Positions 47,333 through 64,000 of a stretch of 64,000 bases of DNA are shown here, piece after piece. Below the pieces are notes generated by a model. That model was given only the letters and a program-made list of their open reading frames with translations. It was not told the DNA's origin and made no database searches. The position numbers were made by a program, and so were the translations under genes. The DNA comes from Pyrenophora tritici-repentis (lineage: Eukaryota > Ascomycota > Dothideomycetes > Pleosporales > Pleosporaceae), in assembly GCF_003171515.1 (NCBI RefSeq), contig NC_089395.1, positions 1,488,001-1,552,000 of the forward strand, given 5' to 3'. Position 1 is the stretch's first letter, and every line of letters begins with the position of its first letter.

Positions 47333-47661
47333 CTGATCAGTGATTGCTTAAGGCGATCACAGACAGCAAGGTAGAAGAGACAGACCGCATCTTCGACGAA
47401 CTCCCTGACGCACGACGTTATACTCCCGGGAGAAGATTCTGTGCTAAGAACAGAGCGAGGCAGAGATAACACGAAGCACTCTTAACCTCCCTCTACAGCT
47501 GCTGGTTTAGCTTAATCCGCGAACACAGAGCGCGTCAGCAACGCAATACAACTCAACCGTACGAGCGTCTCCGGACGATCCGATCACGTACAACAACAAG
47601 CGCTGGCACGACCAACCAGCGAGACAACAACACCGACAACGCGTCAACACCCGCTAGCAAG

Positions 47662-49550
47662 ATGGCGGATAACCAAAGCGAAATAAGCTCTGCAGACTCT
47701 GCTGAAGCTCAGAATCAACTACAGAATGAGCAATCAGAACACCTCTTAGACTCACCATGGGCCAAATTTACCGCGGAACAACTTATGGAAAACTGTCCAT
47801 ACACAGTTGCACTCAAGGTCATCAATACAGCTCTCTGGGGTGTACCCGCACCGGCGGACGCAAATGAGACACACGCAACAACGTGGGTCGCTAAAGCTAT
47901 CCACGACTACAATGTGTCAATGGCCTGGGACGATGACCTCTTCATTGACTACAAATGGGACTTTGAAGGATGGACGAAGGAGCTATTTAGCAAGGTTGAG
48001 CGTGGTACACTAAGGTCTCTTAAGAGTGTGCTACGACACCGGGGAGTATACACTGGCAACAATCACGCCAGGGTGGCGGACTCTCTCTACAACATTCTAG
48101 GTATAGAGAATACTCTTGAATGGGAACCAGCAGAGTTTCGAGCCATGAAATTCGACCAACAGTCCGAAGCGTACCAGCGCCAGCAGAGCAATAAACGCCA
48201 ACAGGACACTCAGCACACAGTCTATCCAGCTGTACAACAACCACCGCAAGTACAACAACCGCCGCAATTACAACAACCGCCGCAATTACAACAGCCACCG
48301 CAAGTACCACAGCCGTCGCAATTACAACGACCGTCGCAGGGCGAGCAACAAGAGCAGTATAGAGTGAGACAAGGCGTCCAGAGCCGTTCCCAAACAATAG
48401 AGCCACAACAGCCGCTACACATGAGCGGTACGCTGGAAGGGCCTCAGCATCGACAACTGTGGGAGCAGGCCGCGCAGCCGCAACAAGGGCGTGCGCAACT
48501 ACAGACACGGCCGCCAGCGACTGCATATCGCGAAGTCACGCCATTTCCGCAACAGCCAACGAACCGCGTCCCTAACAGACCACCCGAACTACCATACGAC
48601 CCGTACAAGACGCTACCGCCGCGATGGTCCCGCAACGATCGACTCGACGCTAATACGATCACGCAGTTCTCTAAGCTATGGGACAATAGCAACAAGTATA
48701 CAGGGAATGCGTACGATCTCCTAGACGATAAGATCAAGATCTTCTTCAGCATCTGCTGGCAGGTAGATATCCAAGAAGAGCAGTTTCACGCAGTGTTTCC
48801 CCGTATCCTTACCGGACGTGCAGAGACATTCTACATACAGGTTGTAGAGAGAGATGACAGCTTTGCTGATGCGTACATGGCAATCAAAAACCACTTCGAC
48901 CATGACGTCCATCACCAGCACTACTACACAGACTGGACGACTACAACCTTCGCTCGCACCCGCACAGAGAACCCCGACAAGGGACTACACGAGGTTCTGC
49001 AGATCCTGCTTGACAAGCTGCAGCTATGCCAGCGTGCCCTTGGCAAGAACTTTGAGGGCGAGGATGCCCTACGTACCACTGTCATCAATGCCTGCCGAGG
49101 AGTACCAGAGCTTGAGATGGCACTGTTCAAACCAGCCACAATCTGTGAAGGACTCTTCTCAGACCTACGTTCTGCAGTTGAGACACACCTTGCACGGCAA
49201 CACACTGCCCAGATGGTCACAGAGGACCAATATTACTTAGATCGCCGATACAACGGCAATGGAAGAATCCGAGGTGGATCTCGAGGTGGAGGAGGATTCA
49301 GAGGCGGATCCAGAGGAGCATATCGAGGAGGCGAGCAGCGCGACGACAACGGACGAGGATTCAAGCCACGCTGGAGGAAGAAATGCTTTGTTTGCCAGAA
49401 GGAAGGATGCTGGTCTACCAACCACACAGACGAAGAGCGCAAGGCTGCCCGTACACAGTTCTTCTCTACGCTATACTTTACAGGTACACAGCCCCCAAGG
49501 ACTTCTCCGTACATCTTGCAGAATACGAAGGGATCGAGCACACTAGCCAG
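47662..49550 (+). CDS. Copia gag polyprotein
   Basis: Starts at ATG 47662 (MADNQSEISSADSAEAQ). Contains a long Gln/Pro-rich linker (about residues 170-280), a retrotransposon gag-like helical region (WQVDIQEEQFHAVFPRILTG and following), an RGG-rich stretch, and a zinc knuckle of the C-x2-C...H type in KKCFVCQKEGCWSTNH near 573-588. The frame stays open to 50028, but beyond about 49,500 the text is out of frame with pol and looks non-coding. The end given is approximate. The switch to pol lies near C5 49492-49496. Confidence 0.82.
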
Positions 49551-52500
49551 TACAATCAGAGAGGCTGGAGAGAGGAGGAAGACTGCGAGGATGACGACGA
49601 TGACGACGTCGCGGAAGCATACCTTGAACACCAGTTTTTCACGGAGCAATGCCTTGCAGATCAGGCGTTCTTGCACCACATCTCTGGCGACGACGTATAC
49701 CGCCAAGACGCGCCATCAGCGCCAGCGTCACAGTTCCTGCTTGAAGACCGCTACACAAGATCTGTGTACCAAGGGATCCTACCGGATACAGGCGCTGCCA
49801 ACGTATCCACAGTTGGCAAGGAGCAGTACCTTGCACTCACAAGGGAAGATCCTACAGTTAGGATGGATACGTCTACAGCAGGAAAGGCATCTATCAAATT
49901 CGGCAAGGGCGAGGCTACATCATCTATTGGCACTGCACAGGTCTCTACAGACATTGGGACGATCAACTTTGAGGTGCTTGACGCACCTACACCATTCTTA
50001 TTGTGCCTTGCAGACATGGACAGGTTAAAGGTCTACTTTAACAACACCACAGATGAGCTAGTCCAGGGTGACGTACACATCCCGGTGATTCGCAAATGGG
50101 GACATCCTTGGTTCCATCTGAACAAAAGAGAGAGAGCAACTGTGTTCCTGACAGAGACAGAGTTGCGACGGCTCCATCGACGATTTGGACACCCAGCTGT
50201 CACGCGACTTGTTAAGCTCTTAAAGGATGCTGGCTATAACGACTTCGAAGAAAGAACCCTAGAAGAAGTCACTAAGTTCTGCCACCACTGCCAGCTCCAC
50301 AGCTCCGCACCGCGCCGATTCAAATTCACTCTCAAGGATGATCACCACTTCAACTATGAGATCCTGGTGGATGTGATGTACCTGAGCAACAAACCTGTAC
50401 TGCATGTGGTCGATTCCTCAACAGCGTTTCAAGGCGCGAGGTTCCTTAGCGCTATCTCAGCTAAAGAAACATGGCAAGCACTGCGGATACTATGGATCGA
50501 CACGTATCAAGGACCACCAGACATTATCACGCATGACGCAGGCACTAACTTTGCAAGCACAGAGTTCCGCGCAGAAGCAAAGATCATGGGAGTCACATGC
50601 AAGCAAGTACCTACGGAGGCGCACTGGTCTATCGGCAAAACTGAGAGGTACCATGCACCTCTACGCCGCGCATGGGACATACTCTATGCAGAACTCACTG
50701 ACACTATGTCCGACGACGCGATTCTCCAGATGGCTGTGAAGGCTGTCAACGATACTGCTGGCCCCGATGGACTAGTCCCGACGCTACTAGTCTTTGGAGC
50801 GTACCCACGAATGACTGCAGAGTCACCGCCATCCCCGTCAATGGTTAAGCGCAGCGAGGCTATTCAAAAGGCGACGAAAGCCCTACGCAAGATCACGGCA
50901 GAGCGCCAAGTTGCAGACGCCTTGAACACCCGCAATGGACCAGCCACTGCAGACATGCTCGCGCTCCCACTCCAGAGCGAAGTCTTAGTATGGAGAGAGA
51001 GTGATGGCTGGAATGGCCCGTACAAGATCGCCAGTACAGATGGCCACAACGTCACTGTTGACATGGTCAATGGTCCAACGACATTCAGATCCACTGTCGT
51101 CAAGCCATACTACAGACCGGACCACCTTTGGAGCGACCCCGATGCGCCACACGCGCCGAATGAGCCGCATGAGCCGGTAGCAGTACCACCGGCAGTGCAA
51201 CCACGCAGGAGAGGCCGCCCTCCAGGGTCAAAGAACAAGCGGAAGGCGCACGCGTACATCACCAAGAAGGAGCAGGACGATCTTGAGCTAGCTATCAAAC
51301 TACGTAACGATGGAGTGATCACAACCTCAGGCGCCCCCTTTGAAGCGTCTGATGACCAAGAGATCAGCGACCTCGTAGGTCGTGGAGTCTTTAAATTTGA
51401 GCAATACGACGAGAGGCTACACAGCAAGATCCGGATCTTCAAGTCACGCCTAGTACGTGAGGTCAAGGGAAAGACAACCAAGCCCTATGAGAAATCCCGC
51501 CTAGTTATCCAAGGCTACCAGGACCACGGCAAGGAGACTATTCTGACGCAATCTCCAACCATACAGCGATGTAGCCAGCGCCTGATTATGTCGCTGGCGC
51601 CCGAGATGGTACAACGCGGAATGAACATCGAGCTCCGTGACATTACGCAGGCGTATCCCCAGGCGCAGACAACCCTGAAGAGGACGATACTCGCACATCT
51701 TCCTACTGAGCTAGTCCATCGATATCCAGAAGGCACGCTACTCCATGTGATCAAGCCGCTGTATGGAATCGCTGAGGCAGGAGTCCACTGGTGGACAACG
51801 TATCACGGACACCATTGCAAGGAACTGGACATGGCAACATCGACGTACGACCCATGCCTATTGATCACGAACAGCGACGACGCAGGCATCTTCGGCATCG
51901 TTGGCATGCAGACAGACGACACTCTCATGCTCGGGACACCAGCGTTCTCGTCACGTGAAGAGAAGAAGATCCAGAAGGCAGAGTTCAGGTCAAAGCCAAA
52001 AGCAAGGCTGACACCAGAAGTGCAGTTAGACTTCAATGGATGTACACTCACGATGGACGCCAGCAGAGTCTTGACCCTTAGGCAGAAAGGACAAGGAGGA
52101 AGGATCAGGCTTGTGAATATCAGGGCACCCGACCGCGCGCAACAGTACACCGAGCAGCGCGCCCGCGGAGCGTACATCGCATCAACATGCCAACCAGAGG
52201 CGTCATTTGACCTGTCCGTCGCTGCTCAAGCTCAGCAACCATCAGACGAGGACATCAAGGCACTCAACAAACGCCTGAAATGGCAGATGGAGAATCTTGA
52301 TCGTGGCCTGCGCTACGTCACTGTCAATCTTATGGAGGCCAAGTTGATGGTCTTTGTGGATGGCTCCTTTGCCAACAACAAGGACCTCAGCTCACAGCTA
52401 GGCTTTGTCCTTATGCTCGTCAACGAGTCTATTGACGTCAACACCTTCACAATACAGGGCAACGTGATCCACTACAGCTCTACAAAATGCAAGCGCATCA

Positions 52501-52799
52501 CACGGAGCGTACTGGCCTCAGAGATCTACGGCATGGTCAACGGCTTTGACATAGGCATTGCAGTTGCAACCACGCTGAGGATAGTTACAGAACGACTTAG
52601 ACTACCTGCAATTCCCTTGGTTATCTGTACAGACTCGTACTCCTTGTACGAGTGCCTAGTAAAGCTTGGGACGACGAAGGAAAAGCGTCTCATGATCGAC
52701 ATCATGGCGCTGCGCCAATCATATGAGCGTCGCGAGATCACGGAGATCCGCTGGATCAATGAGGGATGGGTGCAGAGGCCGACAAGCTTTGATGGCTGA
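49500..52799 (+). CDS. Copia pol polyprotein (PR-INT-RT-RH)
   Basis: Continues in the -1 frame relative to gag; open from before 49383. Aspartic protease motif GILPDTGAANVST; GAG-pre-integrase zinc site (HRRFGHP...CHHCQ); integrase core with D in LVDVMYLSN, D in HDAGTNF and a following E; Copia RT block with RDITQAYPQ and MQTDDT; RNase H with FVDGSFANN and CTDSYSLYE. It ends at TGA 52797-52799, 84 bp before the 3' LTR. Either a programmed -1 shift joins it to gag, or one base is missing from the C5 run at 49492-49496. Confidence 0.9.
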   Translation, partial: DFSVHLAEYEGIEHTSQYNQRGWREEEDCEDDDDDDVAEAYLEHQFFTEQCLADQAFLHHISGDDVYRQDAPSAPASQFLLEDRYTRSVYQGILPDTGAANVSTVGKEQYLALTREDPTVRMDTSTAGKASIKFGKGEATSSIGTAQVSTDIGTINFEVLDAPTPFLLCLADMDRLKVYFNNTTDELVQGDVHIPVIRKWGHPWFHLNKRERATVFLTETELRRLHRRFGHPAVTRLVKLLKDAGYNDFEERTLEEVTKFCHHCQLHSSAPRRFKFTLKDDHHFNYEILVDVMYLSNKPVLHVVDSSTAFQGARFLSAISAKETWQALRILWIDTYQGPPDIITHDAGTNFASTEFRAEAKIMGVTCKQVPTEAHWSIGKTERYHAPLRRAWDILYAELTDTMSDDAILQMAVKAVNDTAGPDGLVPTLLVFGAYPRMTAESPPSPSMVKRSEAIQKATKALRKITAERQVADALNTRNGPATADMLALPLQSEVLVWRESDGWNGPYKIASTDGHNVTVDMVNGPTTFRSTVVKPYYRPDHLWSDPDAPHAPNEPHEPVAVPPAVQPRRRGRPPGSKNKRKAHAYITKKEQDDLELAIKLRNDGVITTSGAPFEASDDQEISDLVGRGVFKFEQYDERLHSKIRIFKSRLVREVKGKTTKPYEKSRLVIQGYQDHGKETILTQSPTIQRCSQRLIMSLAPEMVQRGMNIELRDITQAYPQAQTTLKRTILAHLPTELVHRYPEGTLLHVIKPLYGIAEAGVHWWTTYHGHHCKELDMATSTYDPCLLITNSDDAGIFGIVGMQTDDTLMLGTPAFSSREEKKIQKAEFRSKPKARLTPEVQLDFNGCTLTMDASRVLTLRQKGQGGRIRLVNIRAPDRAQQYTEQRARGAYIASTCQPEASFDLSVAAQAQQPSDEDIKALNKRLKWQMENLDRGLRYVTVNLMEAKLMVFVDGSFANNKDLSSQLGFVLMLVNESIDVNTFTIQGNVIHYSSTKCKRITRSVLASEIYGMVNGFDIGIAVATTLRIVTERLRLPAIPLVICTDSYSLYECLVKLGTTKEKRLMIDIMALRQSYERREITEIRWINEGWVQRPTSFDG

Positions 52800-54853: not shown

Positions 54854-55065
54854 TGTGGTAGAGGGATAGCCTCAATAGTCAGAAGAGAGGCTGCCGACCC
54901 GCAATCGGTAGAGAGTAGAGAACAAGAAGGTATCCGAACAATAAACGGTAGTATTAAGAATGGTGTACGATAACTGTCGAGCTCCTCTACGCGGAGTCGT
55001 CCTAAAATACTCAACCCTAGCGCCGATTACCTAACGCCGAACACGTGACAAGCTACTACACCACA
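54854..55065 (-). repeat. Gypsy 3' LTR
   Basis: 212 bp, at the left on the map because the element is reversed. Preceded on the minus strand by the polypurine tract. Confidence 0.95.
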
Positions 55066-55394
55066 TTTTCCTCCCCAGCCTCCAGCTTGGTCCCCTCAAG
55101 CTGCCGAATGCCTCTCAAAACTATCCGACCCGCTTTCGACGACTCCTCCGACTGTCTCGCGATGCCTGCCGCAACCTGCAACCATGCTGCCTTCCTGACA
55201 AACACTCGCGTTTGCTCCTCCACCTCCGAAGCGCTCTTAACTAGTCCAGGCCAGAGGTTCTTGTTGAAAGTCCCTCCGCAAGCCCACCGCTGCCTTCAAC
55301 TGCTCTCTCACCTTACAACCACGGCAGCGATCGCCTCTCTTCTTCCCCAATAGCTGCTCGGTGATGCTAACCTCCCCAGCCTCTTCTGTCTCCC

Positions 55395-58300
55395 TTACTC
55401 TGTGTCGCTGTCCCCGCGCGCTATCCGGAGGCGCCGGCTTTGCCCTCCCCTTCTTGAACCTTCCACGATATTTCCTCGGTTTATCCCTCCGACTATCGTT
55501 CGCCTGTCTTGCTCTCCTTCGCGGTCCTCCCCAGCCTGAACATCTCTTGTCTGGTCAGCTCTTGGCGTCGCTTGCCTTTGTCTTGGCGCCGTAGGCCTTG
55601 CCATTGGCAATCTCTCGGTCTCGGGATACAACCGCAAGCGCCCTCGCAGCAGGCTATCTTCTAGCTCCTCCGGCAGTTCTTCGAATTTCTTTAGGCGATC
55701 AGCCCGAGTTGTATTCGGAAAAGCAACCTCATTTAGATCCTCTAGCCGGTAGTACCCTTTATCTGCCTGCGCCTCCCGAACTCTGTATGGACCTCTCCAC
55801 CTGTCATCGAGCTTCCTATCCGAGCTCTTGTCGATGGACTTAATCGCGTCCCAAACTAAAACTAGGTCTCCTACTTGAAAGGGCTTCGGCACGTCCTTCT
55901 TAGCGTTGCGGCTCTCCACAGCTTCTCTCCGAAGTCTTCTCGTACGTTGGACTGCTTCTTCCAGGTTCTCTCTGCGGAATTGCAGCTGCGTAGCTCTCAC
56001 CGCAAGAAGATCGGCATGGCTCCGAACTTCGCTCCACGGTAGGCTTTGCCACGTTGGCACTACAAGTTCAATCGGAAGGACCGGATTTTGACCAAGCACC
56101 AACTGCGCAGGTGAGAACCCGAGCGGTCTTCGTAGCGACACTCTCTCGGCCCACGTTATTGCTGACAAGTTGTCTATCCACAAGCCCGGCATCTTTGCCA
56201 GCCCATGGATAAAGCCTTGATGACCTCTTTCGATAAGCCCTTGCGCGCGCGAGTTATACGCGGAGGCTTGAACCCGGTGAATACCAAAGAGCGTAGCCAG
56301 CGACTGGACTACTGACTTGTTCTCGGTTCCGCCGTCTACCGAAATCCTTTCGGGCACACCCCAACGACAGCAGATCTCTTCAAAGATAAACTTCGCAACT
56401 GAATCGGAACTTGCTGTCGAGAGCGCACGAGTCTCTGGCCAGCCCGAAAGATACTCTCTTGCAACTAGCAGGTAGGTCCTGCCGCGTACCCTCGGCATGT
56501 GCGTAATGTCGACTGTCCACCAAGACCACATTGCCCGAGAGTATGTCGAGTTAAGCTCTGCTTCTTTCCGAGTGCCTCTCATCGTCTGGCAGACCTTGCA
56601 AGGCCCGAGCTGCTTCGCTACCTGTCTGTACATGCCGTCCCACCAATACCGCTGACATACAGCTCCGAACGTCGTCTGGATCCCTTTATGGCCTAACCGC
56701 TCGTGGATTTCCTGGATTAACGCTGCCTGTAGGTCTTCTCCGTCTACCACTCGGCGGACTGGCATAGCCTTGGTAGCTTTCCTAAACAGGTGTCGGTCTC
56801 GCACGAAGAAGCGCGCCGCATTCTTTGTCCACTTTCGCCGTTCTTGACCCCGAAGCCCATCTGGTCTCTTCAACGTCCGCAGGAACACCGCAATCTCCTC
56901 CGACTTCTCATCGTACTCCTCTGTGAGCAGCTTCCCAATCGTCTCTTCAGTAGCCATAACTAAATTTGTCTCCTCATACCTGTTTAGCACCCGATCGATA
57001 AACGGCTCTAGGTCATCCTCGTCTTCCTTTGGCGGCGTCCACCCCTCAGGCTGCGGATACCTCGATAGAGCATCGGGGATAACATTCTTCTTTCCTGGCA
57101 CGTGGACAATCTCGAATTCCCACTGAAGGATAGTCGCAAGCCACCTATTCATCACAGAGCCTGGCAAATCTGGAGACGACCGATTGAGCTGCGCAATTAG
57201 CACCTTTGCGTCTGTTTCCACTCGGAAGGGGTGTCCATAAAGGTGGACCTGAAAGACCTTCAGCGCCCAAACAAGCGCTTTACACTCGAGCTTTGTGGAG
57301 TGGAGCTTCGACTCTGCTTCGGACCACAGCGTGCTTTCAAACCTTATTGTGTGGCGACGGCCATCCGGACCAACTTGCTCCAAGTGAGCCCCTGCCCCGC
57401 GAACTGAGGCGTCCACGCCGACAATCAAAAGACCGCCCCGATAGTTAATCGCCACAAGCGCTGGCGGAGAGGTAATCGCTTCCTTCAGAATCTTCATCGC
57501 ATGCCTCTGCTCGTCTCCCCAAATCCACCTAGCGTCCTTTCGAAGGAGCACGAAGAGCGGCTCTGCTTTCAGCGAGAAACAAAAGATCCATTGCCGATAG
57601 TAGACAACGATGCCAACAAACTGTCGGACCTCTTTTACGGTTCGGCACTCCGGCCACTCAAGGATCTTTCGGACCTTATCCTTCGCAGGATGGCGACCGT
57701 CCTTGTCAACTTCATACCCTACAATAGCCATTCGGGGAACTCCCCACCACGACTTCTTTCCTGAGACTGTGGCCTCGGCCCGAGCGATGTCCGTAAGGAC
57801 CTTATCCATCTGCAAAGCATGTTCGAGAACAAACCGACGCACACCATCGAAAGCTTCCTCTCCTCCGTAGTCGTCTCGAGGCCCTGCCACTACAATGTCA
57901 TCTACAAAAGGCGCTGTCTCCGGAAGGTGATCGTGGAGGATCTTCATCACCGCCCGAACAAAGACCGCCACAGAGTTTGTCGCGCCCATCGGGAGCGTGC
58001 ACTGTCGGTATAGTCCGTTTGGCGTCTGAAAGGCTGTCATGTCCCTACTAGACGTGTGCAATGGTATCTGGTCATAACCCGAAAACAGATCAAACAGAGC
58101 GTAAGTCCTCCTGTTTGCGAACCTCTCCGAGAACTCATCAGCAGATGGCGGGATATAGGCGTCCCTTAAAGTCACGGCGTTGTATCGTACAGCATTGTTA
58201 ATGAACCGAAAGTCCTCTGGTTTAACTGGTCGCTCAATCTTCGGAACAAGAAAGTACTTATTGCGGTACTGCCCGTCGCCATGCTCGAATGTCCCTCGTT

Positions 58301-59020
58301 CTGCCCGTACGTCCACCATCGCGTTCACAATCGGCACAAGCTTCTTTGGTAACGGAAAGTTCTTCTCTTGCCACGCGGTGTGCGGAATAGTCCGAATCTT
58401 GTACGGAGGCTGTACATCTTCGTGGATTTGCGACATGTGCTGAAACTCCCACGCCAGCGCATCCTCTCGCTGGAACATAAGCTGTTGGATTAAGTGAACC
58501 TCATTCGGACGGAGATCTTCGCCAATATTCATCTTTCGAAGACGCTCCGGGTTTAACCGATGCCCTCTCGGAAACGTTGCTGTACGGACATAGAAAAGGT
58601 GATCAAATGGGCCAATGTCCGGTCCTCTGAGTGCTATTCGAGCGGCTTGACGAGCTATTGCGCGCTCCTTCCAGTCCTTACGCCCGAGATCCATCGGTGC
58701 GTCTTCTCTCGGTATGTCCACAGGCTTTACTTTATCGGCGACTCTCTTGTACAGGGTATTTACTTCCCCCGATAACCTGTCACGCGACAGACGAAACTGC
58801 TGCCTTACTATCTCCTCGAAGGACCTCTGCTCCTCCGCTGACAACACCTGCCCCGACTTTCCCCCTTCCCGGCGGTCCAGCTCTTCCCCGAACAACCATC
58901 TGTACTCAGGCATGCGCGCAAACCAGCGCGCTACCCGCATGTCACTCGGTATAAGTTCTGGGCAATACTCCTCCGCCGAGCACACTTCCCCAGTAAGCGC
59001 GCTCGCTATCCTTTTCCCTG
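55395..59020 (-). CDS. Gypsy pol (RT-RNase H-integrase)
   Basis: About 1,200 aa in the -1 frame relative to gag; the frame opens at about 59025. RT blocks YALFDLFSGYDQIPL, LPMGATNSVAVF and PFVDDIVV (FVDD catalytic site); RNase H with GVDASVRGAGAHL, KLECKALVWALK and ETDAKVLI; integrase zinc region GHKGIQ...CKVCQTMRG, then core DITHMPRV, SVDGGTENKS and a following GLIERGHQG. The order after protease (RT, RH, IN) defines Ty3/Gypsy. No chromodomain seen. No ATG suits the start, so expression by -1 frameshift from gag is the natural model. The coordinate 59020 marks the slippery codon, not an initiation site. Confidence 0.92.
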
Positions 59021-61981
59021 ATGCTCAATCGACGCCGCGTTGGCTGTAGGCGCTGGGTCACACCCTATAAAAGAAACTTCACGCCGACCGTCCATCGACT
59101 TGATGTAGCAAAGTGTCCGACCAACAGTGTCGAACTGTATCTGGAGACGCGCCGTTGCGCACCATGGTGTCCCAAGAAGAATTGCTCTCCGTAAACGTCT
59201 CACAATCCGAAAGTGCGTTGGCACTATAATCCCTCCAACTGCAATTGGAACCGAATAAGCTGTGCCTACAAAGGGGTCCATCCCTCCATCGGCGGTTATC
59301 ATGCCCTGCTGCAATTCGGGAGGCAGACCCGACTGATCTAGCTCAGTAATGTAGACATTCAGCGCTCTCGCTGTCGAAAGCCGCATAACGTTCAGCTGCG
59401 AGCCCGTGTCAATAAGCGCTCGACCCATACCACCGTGGAGAGACACCCAGCATGTCGGCAACTGTCCTTTCACCGAATACCGCTGCTGCTGTAACTCGCC
59501 CTTTAGTCGCGCTTCGGAGGGCATTCTCGATTGCGCTTCGACGTAGCCGTCTTCCTCGTCACTAATCTCGTAGTTTTGGAAATCGTGGAGCTCATTGGCT
59601 TCCCCGACTCCCACTCGGTCAATTTTTCGGCTGCGATCCATCTTCGGACACAGCTGCGTCAGAATACCTTTCGTAATAACCTCCGGTTGAGAGCTCTCAG
59701 TCTCCACCACACAAGTATCTCCAGAACCCCAGTCATATAATCGCTGGACTGCCTCTTCTATCGAACCATCTTCATCACTATCAGCTTTTTCGTCATCAGA
59801 TTTATTATTATTAGCTTGTTGGATCTCCATTGTCTCTCCTGAGCGCGTTTCGTCAACCTGAAAGTGCACACGCGGCCTACGCGCTTCCTCGAGTGCTTTG
59901 GTCACTGCCGCAGCTACTTCGGGAGACGCTAATAAATCGAGCTGCCGGATCCCGCGGACTTCCTGGTTTAACATTGCCTTTGCAAGTACCGTCGGTGCTG
60001 TGTTCTGGGCCATCGCCGCAAGGTCTTCGGTCGTCGGTATGGTCACAGGTGCGAAGGCTCGAGAGGCTTTCGGAACAGGCGCTGGTGCAGGTATAACATC
60101 GTAGTCCACTGTGGCGCTCCGACTGTCTCTCTCGCGCGTCCCGTTGCTTATCGGAGTGTCAAGACGTTGTTGAACCTGAGTTTCAGGCACCTGGGAGTCG
60201 TCGATCTCTACTTGGGCTCTATGCCTTAGCACCTCTGGCTCCTCTTCGACGTCCATGTCTTCATAGCTGCTCGCGGTCCGACTGCTCTTCATCCGAGGCA
60301 TGCCTGGCTTCTTACCAAGGCGAGCTTCACGCTCCCGCTGTTCTTTCGCCAGTCGACCAGCCTTCGTGCGCCCATCTATGGCGTTGACTTCCGAGTCGTC
60401 TTCGGGGTGCAGTACTCTACAAGACACGGTTTCAAGGAACTGCGCAGCTGACCGAAGGGCCATCGTTTGCCTCGCCATCAGCTCCGCTTCCTCGCTTGAC
60501 TCTACTGTGTAGCTCTCGCCGCTGTTACCAGTCTTTTCAACCTTAATAGGCCTTCCTGCTGCGTCGAACCAATTTGGGAGAACTTCTTGCATGGGCCGCT
60601 TTAGTTGGTCATCGGTCACCTTGAAACGCTCCTTTAAAGACTGAAGTAGCCACTCGAGAACCTCACTCCCAAAGGGTTTCGGCGCAATGCCTCCGCCAGG
60701 GAACATGCCCCAGATGTCTGTCGGGTAGGGTCCGAAGTAGTACCGGACTTGCTTCCAGCCATTCGGTTGCTCCTCGCTCCGGGTGTGGCACCACCGATTA
60801 CTCTTCAGAAGGTTCTGGTCCGGACAATTCGCGATAATGTGCCCTTCTCTGCCACAGCACCTGCAGCGAGCACGCTGCGGCTCTCGGTTGCCTGCGTAAT
60901 GTACGCCTACCTGCGGGTTGACTATTGGTGGGTAGATTGACTTGAAGCTCCCGTCATTGCGTTCTAGTATCTCCGTGCTTACCCGGTGGGGTCTTAGCAC
61001 AAGCTGCTTGTAGGCCTCTGCGTAATTCTCTGGCTTAGCGAACAGTCTTCGGATCCCAATATTGCCCTCAGCCATCTCGTTGAACTGTTCTATAGTCATC
61101 GACAGTCCTTGGAAACGCTGGATTAGATCCTCCACAGCCTGATCAACTTTCGGAGCAGCTGCCTTGTCGGGCTGAGCAGCAATCGGAAGAATCCCCGGAA
61201 CACTCTGCCGAGGGGCTTCTGAAGGTCTCTTGAATGTCGGGATAGACTCTTCTACTACTCCTGCATCGCGGCGGGCTAGTCTCCGGCTTGTCGAACTGTA
61301 GTCAGAGTATAGGGCACTCAACCCCTCCTCTTGCGCTTGGTGCTCACGGACAAACTGGTAGATCTTCTCAATCTTGAACGAGGTGACGTCGTCTAGACGC
61401 GGCCGATCATCCTTCGGCATGTGGTGCATTACTCGCTCCATGTCCTCTATAGCCAGGCCCCGGAAGAAGAAGTGTCCTTTCTCAAGCTTTGCGACTTGTC
61501 CTCGGCTCTCCGCAGCTGCAAAGTAGGTCACAAAGTTCTGGTAATATTCGACAATTCGGACCGCAGGTTGTCGTCGCTGCACCTCCTTCACGTAGTTTTC
61601 GATGAAAGCTCGGGTACCTCTCTGCCGAAATTCATCCTGCCCCGCATACAGCTCTCGAAGCTCCTCCTTGTACTCCTGGTAGCTCTCTATCCCATAGTAG
61701 CTTGGCAACTTTCGGATAAACGCCTTATACTTTTGTGTGCAGAAGTATGGTAGCTGCTTCTTCCGAAGCTCCTCTGGCCAGCCCACTCGATCAGCTTCGA
61801 AGTCGTACTCGTCTAAGAACTCTGAAATGTTCTCTCCATCAAAGCGTGGCGCGTGCACATCGTGAGGCTCTAGCTTGCCTAGGTACTGACGATAAGAGTC
61901 ACGGGCTGCAGGTTGTCCAGGCTCTGCCATTAGGATTGACACAGGCTCCTCGCTCTGTGCTGAAGACGTCTCGGACGGCAT
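59006..61981 (-). CDS. Gypsy gag with aspartic protease
   Basis: 991 aa from ATG 61981 (MPSETSSAQSEEPVSILM). Capsid-like helical region in residues about 40-230 (FDGENISEFLDEYDFEADRV), one CCHC zinc knuckle CRCCGREGHIIANC near 385, and a long charged linker. A retropepsin-type protease near 860 carries the catalytic triplet in RALIDTGSQLNVM and the later AILLGTPW flap/hydrophobic block. The protease is thus made with gag, and only RT-RH-IN need the frameshift. The stop TAG is at 59008-59006. Confidence 0.92.
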   Translation of the reverse strand: MPSETSSAQSEEPVSILMAEPGQPAARDSYRQYLGKLEPHDVHAPRFDGENISEFLDEYDFEADRVGWPEELRKKQLPYFCTQKYKAFIRKLPSYYGIESYQEYKEELRELYAGQDEFRQRGTRAFIENYVKEVQRRQPAVRIVEYYQNFVTYFAAAESRGQVAKLEKGHFFFRGLAIEDMERVMHHMPKDDRPRLDDVTSFKIEKIYQFVREHQAQEEGLSALYSDYSSTSRRLARRDAGVVEESIPTFKRPSEAPRQSVPGILPIAAQPDKAAAPKVDQAVEDLIQRFQGLSMTIEQFNEMAEGNIGIRRLFAKPENYAEAYKQLVLRPHRVSTEILERNDGSFKSIYPPIVNPQVGVHYAGNREPQRARCRCCGREGHIIANCPDQNLLKSNRWCHTRSEEQPNGWKQVRYYFGPYPTDIWGMFPGGGIAPKPFGSEVLEWLLQSLKERFKVTDDQLKRPMQEVLPNWFDAAGRPIKVEKTGNSGESYTVESSEEAELMARQTMALRSAAQFLETVSCRVLHPEDDSEVNAIDGRTKAGRLAKEQREREARLGKKPGMPRMKSSRTASSYEDMDVEEEPEVLRHRAQVEIDDSQVPETQVQQRLDTPISNGTRERDSRSATVDYDVIPAPAPVPKASRAFAPVTIPTTEDLAAMAQNTAPTVLAKAMLNQEVRGIRQLDLLASPEVAAAVTKALEEARRPRVHFQVDETRSGETMEIQQANNNKSDDEKADSDEDGSIEEAVQRLYDWGSGDTCVVETESSQPEVITKGILTQLCPKMDRSRKIDRVGVGEANELHDFQNYEISDEEDGYVEAQSRMPSEARLKGELQQQRYSVKGQLPTCWVSLHGGMGRALIDTGSQLNVMRLSTARALNVYITELDQSGLPPELQQGMITADGGMDPFVGTAYSVPIAVGGIIVPTHFRIVRRLRRAILLGTPWCATARLQIQFDTVGRTLCYIKSMDGRREVSFIGCDPAPTANAASIEHQGKG
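59012..59018 (-). promoter_or_regulatory. Probable -1 ribosomal frameshift heptamer (GGGAAAA)
   Basis: On the minus strand the last gag codons read CAG GGA AAA GGA TAG. G_GGA_AAA is in the correct X_XXY_YYZ phase and lies three bases before the gag stop. The pol frame opens only after a TGA at about 59028-59026, so a shift must occur within about 20 bases, and this is the only canonical site there. Confidence 0.75.
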
Positions 61982-62441
61982 ATTATTCGATAAAAGAGAC
62001 CTGCTCTGACTGTGTCTTGGACACTAAACGTTATTCCTCTTCTCTTGTTCTGAATACAGATCCGCTGCTTCCGGACTCCCGATTGCCTCTCTGAGACAGG
62101 TTCCTTCCCTCTCTTCCGATGTCCCTTCACCGCTTTGGTGAAAGTGCCTCCTTAGCACTGGGCGTTACGCTCTCGCCTACTCCTATTCGGCTGTACGTTG
62201 TGCCGGTTCTGCAGTCCTTCTGCAGGTTACCACACCGCTCCGCTGACACCGTAGAGACTCCCCGAGAGTTCCGCCGCCTTGGCAAACTTTATCGAGAAGC
62301 GCTCAGAGTTCAATGGGGTCCCCGAAAACTCGTCGTGGGTCTCTGCCCCTCCGACTTCTCCTCGAAAACAGGTAAAACAAAGAGGTTTCTCTACTACTCC
62401 ACCGATAGACCGTCGTGTCCCCCTGGTTAGGTCACCAAAAA

Positions 62442-62653
62442 TGTGGTAGAGGGATAGCCTCAATAGTCAGAAGAGAGGCTGCCGACCCGCAATCGGTAGA
62501 GAGTAGAGAACAAGAAGGTATCCGAACAATAAACGGTAGTATTAAGAATGGTGTACGATAACTGTCGAGCTCCTCTACGCGGAGTCGTCCTAAAATACTC
62601 AACCCTAGCGCCGATTACCTAACGCCGAACACGTGACAAGCTACTACACCACA
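62442..62653 (-). repeat. Gypsy 5' LTR
   Basis: 212 bp; promoter LTR of the reversed element, followed on the minus strand by TTTTTGGTGACCTAACC, where the TGG start suits a tRNA primer-binding site. Confidence 0.95.
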
Positions 62654-63485: not shown

Positions 63486-64000
63486 TCATGCTGAAAAGCC
63501 GACGGCACGCTTGGACACATTGATGTCGACATTGGGGATCTTGGGAATGGAGGGGATGTTGGGAAGCTCGAGGGAAATAGCCTCTGGGTCTCGTTTAGCG
63601 CGAACCTCGTTGCCGTTTTCGTCGACGAGGGTGAGACCAGGGTCTCGCTTAGCGCGGATCTCGTTGCCGTCTTCGTCGACAAGGGTTAGTCCAGGGTCTC
63701 GCTTGCCGATGTTTATCTTGGGGAGAGATGGAAGCTTGGGAAGGTCGACGGAAGCATCAAGATAGACTGAAGCCGGGTCCCGCTTGCCGATGTTTATCTT
63801 GGGGAGAGATGGAAGCTTGGGAAGGTCGACGGAAGCATCAAGATAGACTGAAGCCGGGTCCCGCTTGCCGATGTTTATCTTAGGGAGAGATGGAAGCTTG
63901 GGAAGGTCGACGGAAGCATCAAGATAGACTGAAGCCGGGTCCCGCTTGCCGATGTTTATCTTGGGAAGAGATGGAAGCTTGGGAAGGTCGACGGAAGCAT
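63486..64000 (-). CDS. Kex2-type repeat peptide precursor, 3' part only (candidate RiPP or secreted peptide precursor)
   Basis: Minus-strand frame open from the window edge (64000) to TGA 63488-63486, 171 codons; start and any signal peptide lie outside. It consists of repeats separated by Lys-Arg. Four 27-residue units end in KLPSLPKINIGKR; complete units begin DPASVYLDASVDL. Two 18-residue units follow (DPGLTLVDEDGNEIRAKR and DPGLTLVDENGNEVRAKR), then a last segment DPEAISLELPNIPSIPK... ending SKR and a short AVGFSA tail. Seven KR sites suit Kex2 cleavage in the Golgi, as in KEP proteins, pheromone precursors and dikaritin RiPP precursors (UstA type). No pheromone-like Trp/Cys core is present. 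Tyr in SVYLD would be a possible cyclization residue if it is a RiPP. No tailoring gene is visible in the window. Confidence 0.8.
   Translation of the reverse strand, partial: ASVDLPKLPSLPKINIGKRDPASVYLDASVDLPKLPSLPKINIGKRDPASVYLDASVDLPKLPSLPKINIGKRDPASVYLDASVDLPKLPSLPKINIGKRDPGLTLVDEDGNEIRAKRDPGLTLVDENGNEVRAKRDPEAISLELPNIPSIPKIPNVDINVSKRAVGFSA
63701..64000. repeat. 81-bp tandem repeat, 3.7 copies to window edge
   Basis: Units begin at 63701, 63782, 63863 and 63944, exactly 81 bp apart and differing by single bases (for example CTTGGGGAG, CTTAGGGAG, CTTGGGAAG). The period is 27 codons, so copy number changes keep the frame of the repeat-peptide gene. Copies probably continue beyond 64000. 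Confidence 0.95.

What the first reader, a model, noticed from the sequence alone, without database searches (positions are those of the whole stretch)
63486..64000. Unlisted repeat-peptide precursor with seven Lys-Arg sites: possible new fungal RiPP or Kex2-processed peptide
The minus-strand frame at the window edge has no start codon inside the window, so a simple gene finder would miss it. It reads as a tidy series of peptides separated by KR: four 27-residue units (SVYLDASVDLPKLPSLPKINIG core), two 18-residue units (GLTLVDE core) and a tail. Regular dibasic spacing with conserved residues on both sides is the hallmark of secreted multi-peptide precursors; Tyr-containing repeats also fit dikaritin-type RiPPs. 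The 81-bp near-identical repeats imply recent copy-number change. It lies beside candidate effector genes and young transposons.
Basis: partly seen in the sequence, partly recalled or inferred. Interest (0 to 1): 0.87.

Follow-up and report, generated by a model that had tools for sequence, protein, structure and literature searches.

The report
Fungal precursor of repeated secreted peptides
A fungus that appears to be the wheat tan-spot fungus carries a small gene for a secreted protein that looks built to be cut into many short peptides, much like a mating-pheromone precursor but not the mating pheromone; it is a new member of a known kind of fungal protein.

Summary
Reading past the window edge gives a complete 253-aa gene: ATG at 64304 in window numbering, a 57-nt intron after 7 coding bases, a signal peptide (by eye), nine Lys-Arg sites, five 27-residue units with identical cores, two 18-residue units, one 28-residue unit, a tail. 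It meets the published definition of a Kex2-processed repeat protein (KEP). Seven of nine KR sites are followed by DP, once DP-EA: the Ste13 signature of alpha-pheromone precursors. The genome has one Kex2-type match and two DPPIV-type matches, and its alpha-pheromone gene, on another contig, uses such spacers, DP-EA included. The dikaritin/RiPP reading is not supported: on this contig the nearest UstYa match is about 790 kb away, the nearest tyrosinase about 103 kb. Likely products: linear 23-, 14- and 22-residue peptides acting as a non-mating signal or surface/host-interaction peptide; processing and function are inferred. Three database searches found three proteins, two named Pyrenophora tritici-repentis and one unnamed, each joined to parts of the upstream gene. 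New member of a known kind.

The parts
63486..64000 (-). Part of the KEP gene inside the window (3' part of exon 2, stop TGA 63486-63488). The gene goes on to ATG at 64304 in window numbering (G000:C6:1551486-1552304); exon 1 64298-64304, intron 64241-64297, exon 2 63486-64240
   Evidence: the same splice is used in the annotated protein P0002
63942..64000 (-). 27-residue unit 2 (cut by the window edge; runs to 64022). Unit 1 is at 64023-64103, the N-terminal related unit and signal peptide lie beyond it
63861..63941 (-). 27-residue unit 3, DP-ASVYLDASVDLPKLPSLPKINIG-KR
63780..63860 (-). 27-residue unit 4, same protein sequence
63699..63779 (-). 27-residue unit 5, same protein sequence
63645..63698 (-). 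18-residue unit a, DP-GLTLVDEDGNEIRA-KR
63591..63644 (-). 18-residue unit b, DP-GLTLVDENGNEVRA-KR
63507..63590 (-). 28-residue unit, DP-EA-ISLELPNIPSIPKIPNVDINVS-KR, resembling the N-terminal unit ISVDGSVKLPKIPSIPKIPKVGVNVG-KR
63489..63506 (-). C-terminal tail AVGFSA

Best explanation
A complete gene for a Kex2-processed repeat protein (KEP) with alpha-pheromone-like architecture. Steps inferred from the sequence: the signal peptide takes the 253-aa precursor into the secretory pathway; Kex2 cuts after the KR pairs; a Kex1-type carboxypeptidase removes K and R; a Ste13/DPAP-type dipeptidyl peptidase removes DP (and DP-EA). This would release four copies of ASVYLDASVDLPKLPSLPKINIG (and a fifth starting GSASV), two 14-residue peptides GLTLVDE[D/N]GNE[I/V]RA, one 22-residue ISLELPNIPSIPKIPNVDINVS, and one N-terminal peptide of about 26 residues. 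They are most likely linear and unmodified, and act outside the cell as a non-mating signal or as a peptide used towards the plant or other microbes. The gene, units and spacers are shown; proteolysis, release and function are inferred.
For: Complete ORF with a short first exon, 57-nt GTAAGC...CTAAC...CAG intron and signal peptide MHFSTALTATALFVAASGA; the same splice in the annotated P. tritici-repentis protein P0002. 9 KR; 0 of 20000 shuffles reach this. 7 of 9 KR followed by XP/XA; 2 of 20000 shuffles reach 7 (the units are related, so this overstates independence, but all three unit kinds, 27, 18 and 28 residues, have DP). One P_proprotein (Kex2-type) match and two DPPIV_N matches in the genome. 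The alpha-pheromone precursor found here, with five PYGMPVG units at C2:2603833-2604128, uses EA, DA and one DP-EA spacer. Residues 3-27 of the five 27-residue units: 3 variable nucleotides, all synonymous; the two 18-residue units differ by 5 synonymous and 2 non-synonymous changes over 13.7 and 40.3 sites. Nearest UstYa on the contig about 790 kb off. No confident fold: mean pLDDT 38.8 (single sequence, so weak).
Against: No expression, peptide or knockout data were available. The first 27-residue unit has GS in place of DP (three further nucleotide differences, changing the protein), and the tail does not fit the trimming rule. The synonymous-only result rests on three sites and can also reflect homogenisation of tandem copies. 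The signal peptide was judged by eye, no prediction program being available. Kex1 was not searched for. DPPIV_N matches may be other dipeptidyl peptidases than Ste13.
Confidence: 0.85

Rival explanations
1. Dikaritin-type RiPP precursor: Tyr-containing cores cut out by Kex2, then cyclised by UstYa-type oxidases.
For: KR-spaced repeats with one Tyr in each 27-residue unit; genes of 22.3% of 7878 surveyed KEPs had a DUF3328 gene nearby (PMC7329392). The genome has UstYa genes elsewhere (23 exon-level matches).
Against: Nearest UstYa match on the contig is at C6:2344304, about 790 kb off, against a reported average distance of 3.09 genes; nearest tyrosinase on the contig about 103 kb off. Of 46 neighbouring ORFs listed, 15 were scanned with Pfam; named hits were amino acid permease, a GH141-like match below cut-off, P450, hAT transposase and retrotransposon enzymes. 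Ste13 spacers are reported absent from cyclic-peptide precursors.
Confidence: 0.05
2. Rep1-like structural peptides: cleaved amphipathic peptides that coat hyphae or assemble at surfaces.
For: Several near-identical peptides per precursor; extended amphipathic pattern: the 165-degree moment of the 23-residue core is reached by 35 of 5000 shuffles, that of the N-terminal unit by 181 of 5000.
Against: Four angles were tried on four peptides, so single low counts are weak; the last unit (560 of 5000) and the 14-residue peptide (3756 of 5000) do not stand out at that angle. Ste13 spacers are absent in Rep1 (PMC6339444). Rep1 peptides are given as 37 residues; lengths of 14, 22 and 23 fall in the 9-24 range given for alpha-pheromones.
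Confidence: 0.25
3. Alpha-type mating pheromone precursor.
For: Same precursor plan and spacer type.
Against: The Pleosporales pheromone core PYG[L/M]P[I/V]G is in a separate gene on contig C2; this protein has none.
Confidence: 0.03
4. [quoted passage not shown]
For: Three database proteins join the two (P0001, P0002, P0003).
Against: The three models use different joins; P0002 reads through the KEP's own leader and ATG; the KEP has its own ATG, signal peptide and intron, 436 bp past the stop of the last upstream frame.
Confidence: 0.03

Closest known systems
Kex2-processed repeat proteins (KEPs) as defined by Le Marquer 2019 (PMC6339444) and Umemura 2020 (PMC7329392)
   Same: Signal peptide, at least three repeated units between KR sites, secreted precursor
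   Different: No relative outside three P. tritici-repentis-like entries in the database searched. Umemura's Table 2 has two types that include Pyrenophora (G-8, mostly with DUF3328; G-9, none with DUF3328); whether this protein belongs to G-9 or to any listed type could not be checked, supplements not being open to me
Pleosporales alpha-pheromone precursor (PYGMPVG), same genome, C2:2603833-2604128
   Same: KR followed by XA/XP spacers including DP-EA; Gly before KR (6 of 9 sites here); signal peptide ending SGAAI
   Different: Unrelated core peptide, longer units, three unit kinds in one precursor, one or two spacer dipeptides instead of up to five
Ustilago maydis Rep1 (repellent)
   Same: Kex2-cut precursor releasing several peptides
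   Different: No Ste13 spacers in Rep1 and longer peptides (PMC6339444); the two sequences were not compared directly
Ustiloxin/phomopsin/asperipin dikaritin precursors
   Same: Signal peptide and KR-separated Tyr-bearing repeats
   Different: No UstYa or tyrosinase match nearby; Ste13 spacers present

Membership tests
KEP | N-terminal secretion signal | tested here: met
   Judged by eye from the spliced gene; no prediction program available
KEP | Three or more repeats of 8 or more aa between Kex2 sites, none over 100 aa (PMC7329392 methods) | tested here: met
   Five 27-residue units between KR
KEP | Repeats at least 15% of protein length (PMC6339444 methods) | tested here: met
   5 x 27 of 253 residues
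KEP | Kex2-type protease in the genome | tested here: met
   One P_proprotein match at C8:628252-628515, E 2.3e-30, in an 852-aa frame
KEP | Peptides really released | not testable with these tools
   No peptide or expression data
Alpha-pheromone-like KEP | Ste13 signature XA/XP after the Kex2 site | tested here: met
   7 of 9 sites; first 27-residue unit (GS) and tail (AV) lack it
Alpha-pheromone of Pleosporales | PYG[L/M]P[I/V]G core | tested here: not met
   Absent from the 253-aa protein; present in a separate gene
Dikaritin RiPP | UstYa/DUF3328 gene in the cluster | tested here: not met
   Nearest match on the contig about 790 kb off
Dikaritin RiPP | Tyr in the repeated core | tested here: met
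   One Tyr per 27-residue unit, none in the 18- and 28-residue units
Rep1-type repellent | Amphipathic surface-bound or fibril-forming peptides | not testable with these tools
   Only hydrophobic moments computed

The most novel reading that the evidence does not exclude
A non-mating peptide hormone of an ascomycete: the precursor borrows the alpha-pheromone processing route (Kex2, Kex1, Ste13) to release three kinds of linear peptide, and the adjacent same-strand Fung_rhodopsin-family membrane protein, 436 bp upstream, is its receptor. The receptor link rests on adjacency alone, and Fung_rhodopsin is a large family here (142 exon-level matches).
Probability: 0.06. Interest if true: 0.7.

Novelty: new member of a known kind. 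Interest (0 to 1): 0.36.

Why it matters
It is a complete KEP in a crop pathogen that public gene models join to a neighbouring membrane protein, so surveys that start from annotated proteins with a signal peptide, as both KEP surveys did, could miss it. PMC6339444 says the Ste13 signature is generally dedicated to alpha-pheromones in Ascomycota; a non-pheromone ascomycete precursor with that signature makes a clean test of whether pheromone-style processing serves other peptides. The predicted peptides have exact masses that can be looked for directly.

Tried and rejected
Rejected: dikaritin RiPP, mating pheromone, part of a large structural protein, part of the upstream membrane protein. Known families: no Pfam match over its cut-off (three weak ones with E 0.006-0.065 taken as chance), none in NCBIfam (one weak, E 0.41), no PDB sequence match at E up to 1. 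Structure prediction of the 170-residue window part gave mean pLDDT 38.8 and was not used for a fold search. Homology: whole protein at E 0.001, 3 proteins among 7994 candidates scored (capped to those sharing most words); residues 180-253 at E 10, 1 protein, P0001, among 46; residues 1-58 at E 10, the same 3 among 82. I ran no control showing how well other Pleosporales are covered. Own genome: no second copy (the only other match was antisense to the gene itself, E 0.002, five stops). Papers: the searches listed none that I recognised as describing this gene; supplements could not be opened, so whether the KEP survey tables list it is unknown. PMC9594970 (Ptr pangenome; passages only) has no occurrence of Kex2 or pheromone. 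Copy-number difference between isolates could not be measured: P0002 and P0003 stop inside the repeats.

Full report
What is there. The window is G000:C6:1488001-1552000 of a 40.9-Mb genome in 41 contigs.

The rest of the gene. I fetched the DNA beyond the edge. The frame leads through one more whole 27-residue unit and a related N-terminal unit to a signal peptide. A 57-nt intron (GTAAGC ... CTAAC ... CAG) splits the gene after 7 coding bases; splicing gives MHFSTALTATALFVAASGAAISVDG... and a 253-residue protein. The same splice appears in the annotated protein P0002. The intron is a multiple of three and holds no stop in frame, so retention would not close the frame. The anatomy is: signal peptide (by eye); N-terminal unit ISVDGSVKLPKIPSIPKIPKVGVNVG-KR; five 27-residue units; two 18-residue units; one 28-residue unit; AVGFSA. 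Nine KR occur; shuffles average 1.05 and 0 of 20000 reach nine.

Constraint. The five 27-residue units are identical in protein sequence from residue 3 on; three nucleotide positions vary there and all changes are synonymous. Three further differences turn DP into GS in the first unit. The two 18-residue units differ by 5 synonymous and 2 non-synonymous changes over 13.7 and 40.3 sites. This suggests selection on the peptides, weakly, because tandem copies also homogenise.

Processing signals. Seven of nine KR sites are followed by DP, one of them by DP-EA. XA/XP after the Kex2 site is the Ste13 signature of alpha-pheromone precursors (PMC6339444: abstract, Results, part of the Discussion and the pipeline methods read; PMC9769878: abstract and passages). 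PMC6339444 says the signature is generally dedicated to alpha-pheromones in Ascomycota. I found this genome's alpha-pheromone precursor by the published PYG[L/M]P[I/V]G core: five tandem pattern matches at C2:2603833-2604128 of six in the genome, against one for the reversed control pattern. Its translation uses EA and DA spacers and one DP-EA. So the genome uses the same dipeptides in a precursor whose processing is known from other fungi. One Kex2-type match and two DPPIV-type matches are present; Kex1 was not searched.

Not a dikaritin. Of 23 exon-level UstYa matches in the genome the nearest on this contig is at C6:2344304, about 790 kb away. Of 25 tyrosinase matches the nearest on this contig is C6:1447660-1448352, about 103 kb away. 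Of 46 reading frames listed around the gene I scanned 15 with Pfam, plus P0003: named hits are amino acid permease, P450, a GH141-like match below its cut-off, hAT transposase and retrotransposon enzymes. Of the other 31 frames one is the gene itself (scanned); the rest were not scanned. The Tyr argument stands only as a lead: each 27-residue unit has one Tyr.

The upstream gene. Its Fung_rhodopsin match comes from P0003 (E 1.2e-21), whose upstream exons I can read in this genome. The one frame of it scanned alone (L003:3741-4166) had no match, and the whole-genome search for the family, which works exon by exon and scored 150 of 160 candidates, lists no match at this place.

Relatives. Three protein-database searches found P0001 (402 aa, unnamed, with the same five units), P0002 and P0003, and nothing else; cut-offs were E 0.001 and E 10 (one search found P0001 alone). 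P0001 and P0003 join the repeats to several upstream exons and P0002 to the first one; the joins differ, which looks like gene-prediction error. P0002 and P0003 end inside the repeats; their first 27-residue unit differs from this one at 5 and 4 residues, which may be allelic variation or assembly error. I cannot say whether other Pleosporales lack the gene, as no control for their coverage was run, and Umemura's type G-9, which spans Pyrenophora and 13 other genera without DUF3328, could be this family or another.

How it probably works. Secretion, Kex2 cleavage, Kex1 and Ste13 trimming, and release of linear peptides: every step is inferred from sequence and from known processing of alpha-pheromones. 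The activity is unknown. I favour a signalling or biotic-interaction peptide because of the Ste13 signature, an argument PMC6339444 makes for such KEPs. By that paper's counting rule (three or more fragments per pattern) this precursor has one repeated motif; counting all fragments it has three unit kinds. The main rival is a Rep1-like surface peptide: the 23-residue peptide has an extended amphipathic pattern (35 of 5000 shuffles reach its 165-degree moment), but four angles by four peptides were tried and not all units show it. Knockouts of six KEPs in Coprinopsis cinerea gave no apparent phenotype in pure culture (PMC9769878, abstract and passages), so a subtle role is plausible.

Verdict. 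Real, complete, and ordinary in kind: a survey counts 7878 KEPs in 1345 of 1461 strains, 2560 of them stand-alone (PMC7329392; outline and abstract, named sections, passages). This one has pheromone-type spacers around a core that is not the pheromone, and is hidden in public gene models by fusion with its neighbour.

Noticed in passing
window 54854-62653: Ty3/gypsy-type retrotransposon (RT, RNase H and integrase matches in 55398-59024; frame 59009-62023 without Pfam match, taken as gag by position) with a 212-nt repeat 100% identical at both ends, so a young insertion, within about 0.8 kb downstream of the KEP gene.
   Followed up: partly
window 47470-52796: Ty1/copia-type element: RVT_2 match and a gag_pre-integrs match below its cut-off in 49182-52796; none in 47470-50025.
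   Followed up: no
P0001, P0002, P0003: Database proteins join this KEP to parts of the upstream Fung_rhodopsin-family gene in three different ways.
   Followed up: partly
L036 (around G000:C2:2603833-2604128): Alpha-pheromone precursor with five PYGMPVG units; three of the units have an internal KRP that a naive KR cut would split.
   Followed up: partly
P0002 and P0003, first 27-residue unit: Differs from this genome at 5 and 4 residues, mostly in the C-terminal half; allelic variation or assembly error.
   Followed up: no
L003:3741-4830 minus: Gene directly upstream of the KEP on the same strand, Fung_rhodopsin family by its counterpart P0003, 436 bp between its last frame's stop and the KEP ATG.
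   Followed up: partly
L005:6479-9007: Open 843-aa frame with a hAT transposase dimerisation domain, about 12 kb upstream of the KEP.
   Followed up: no
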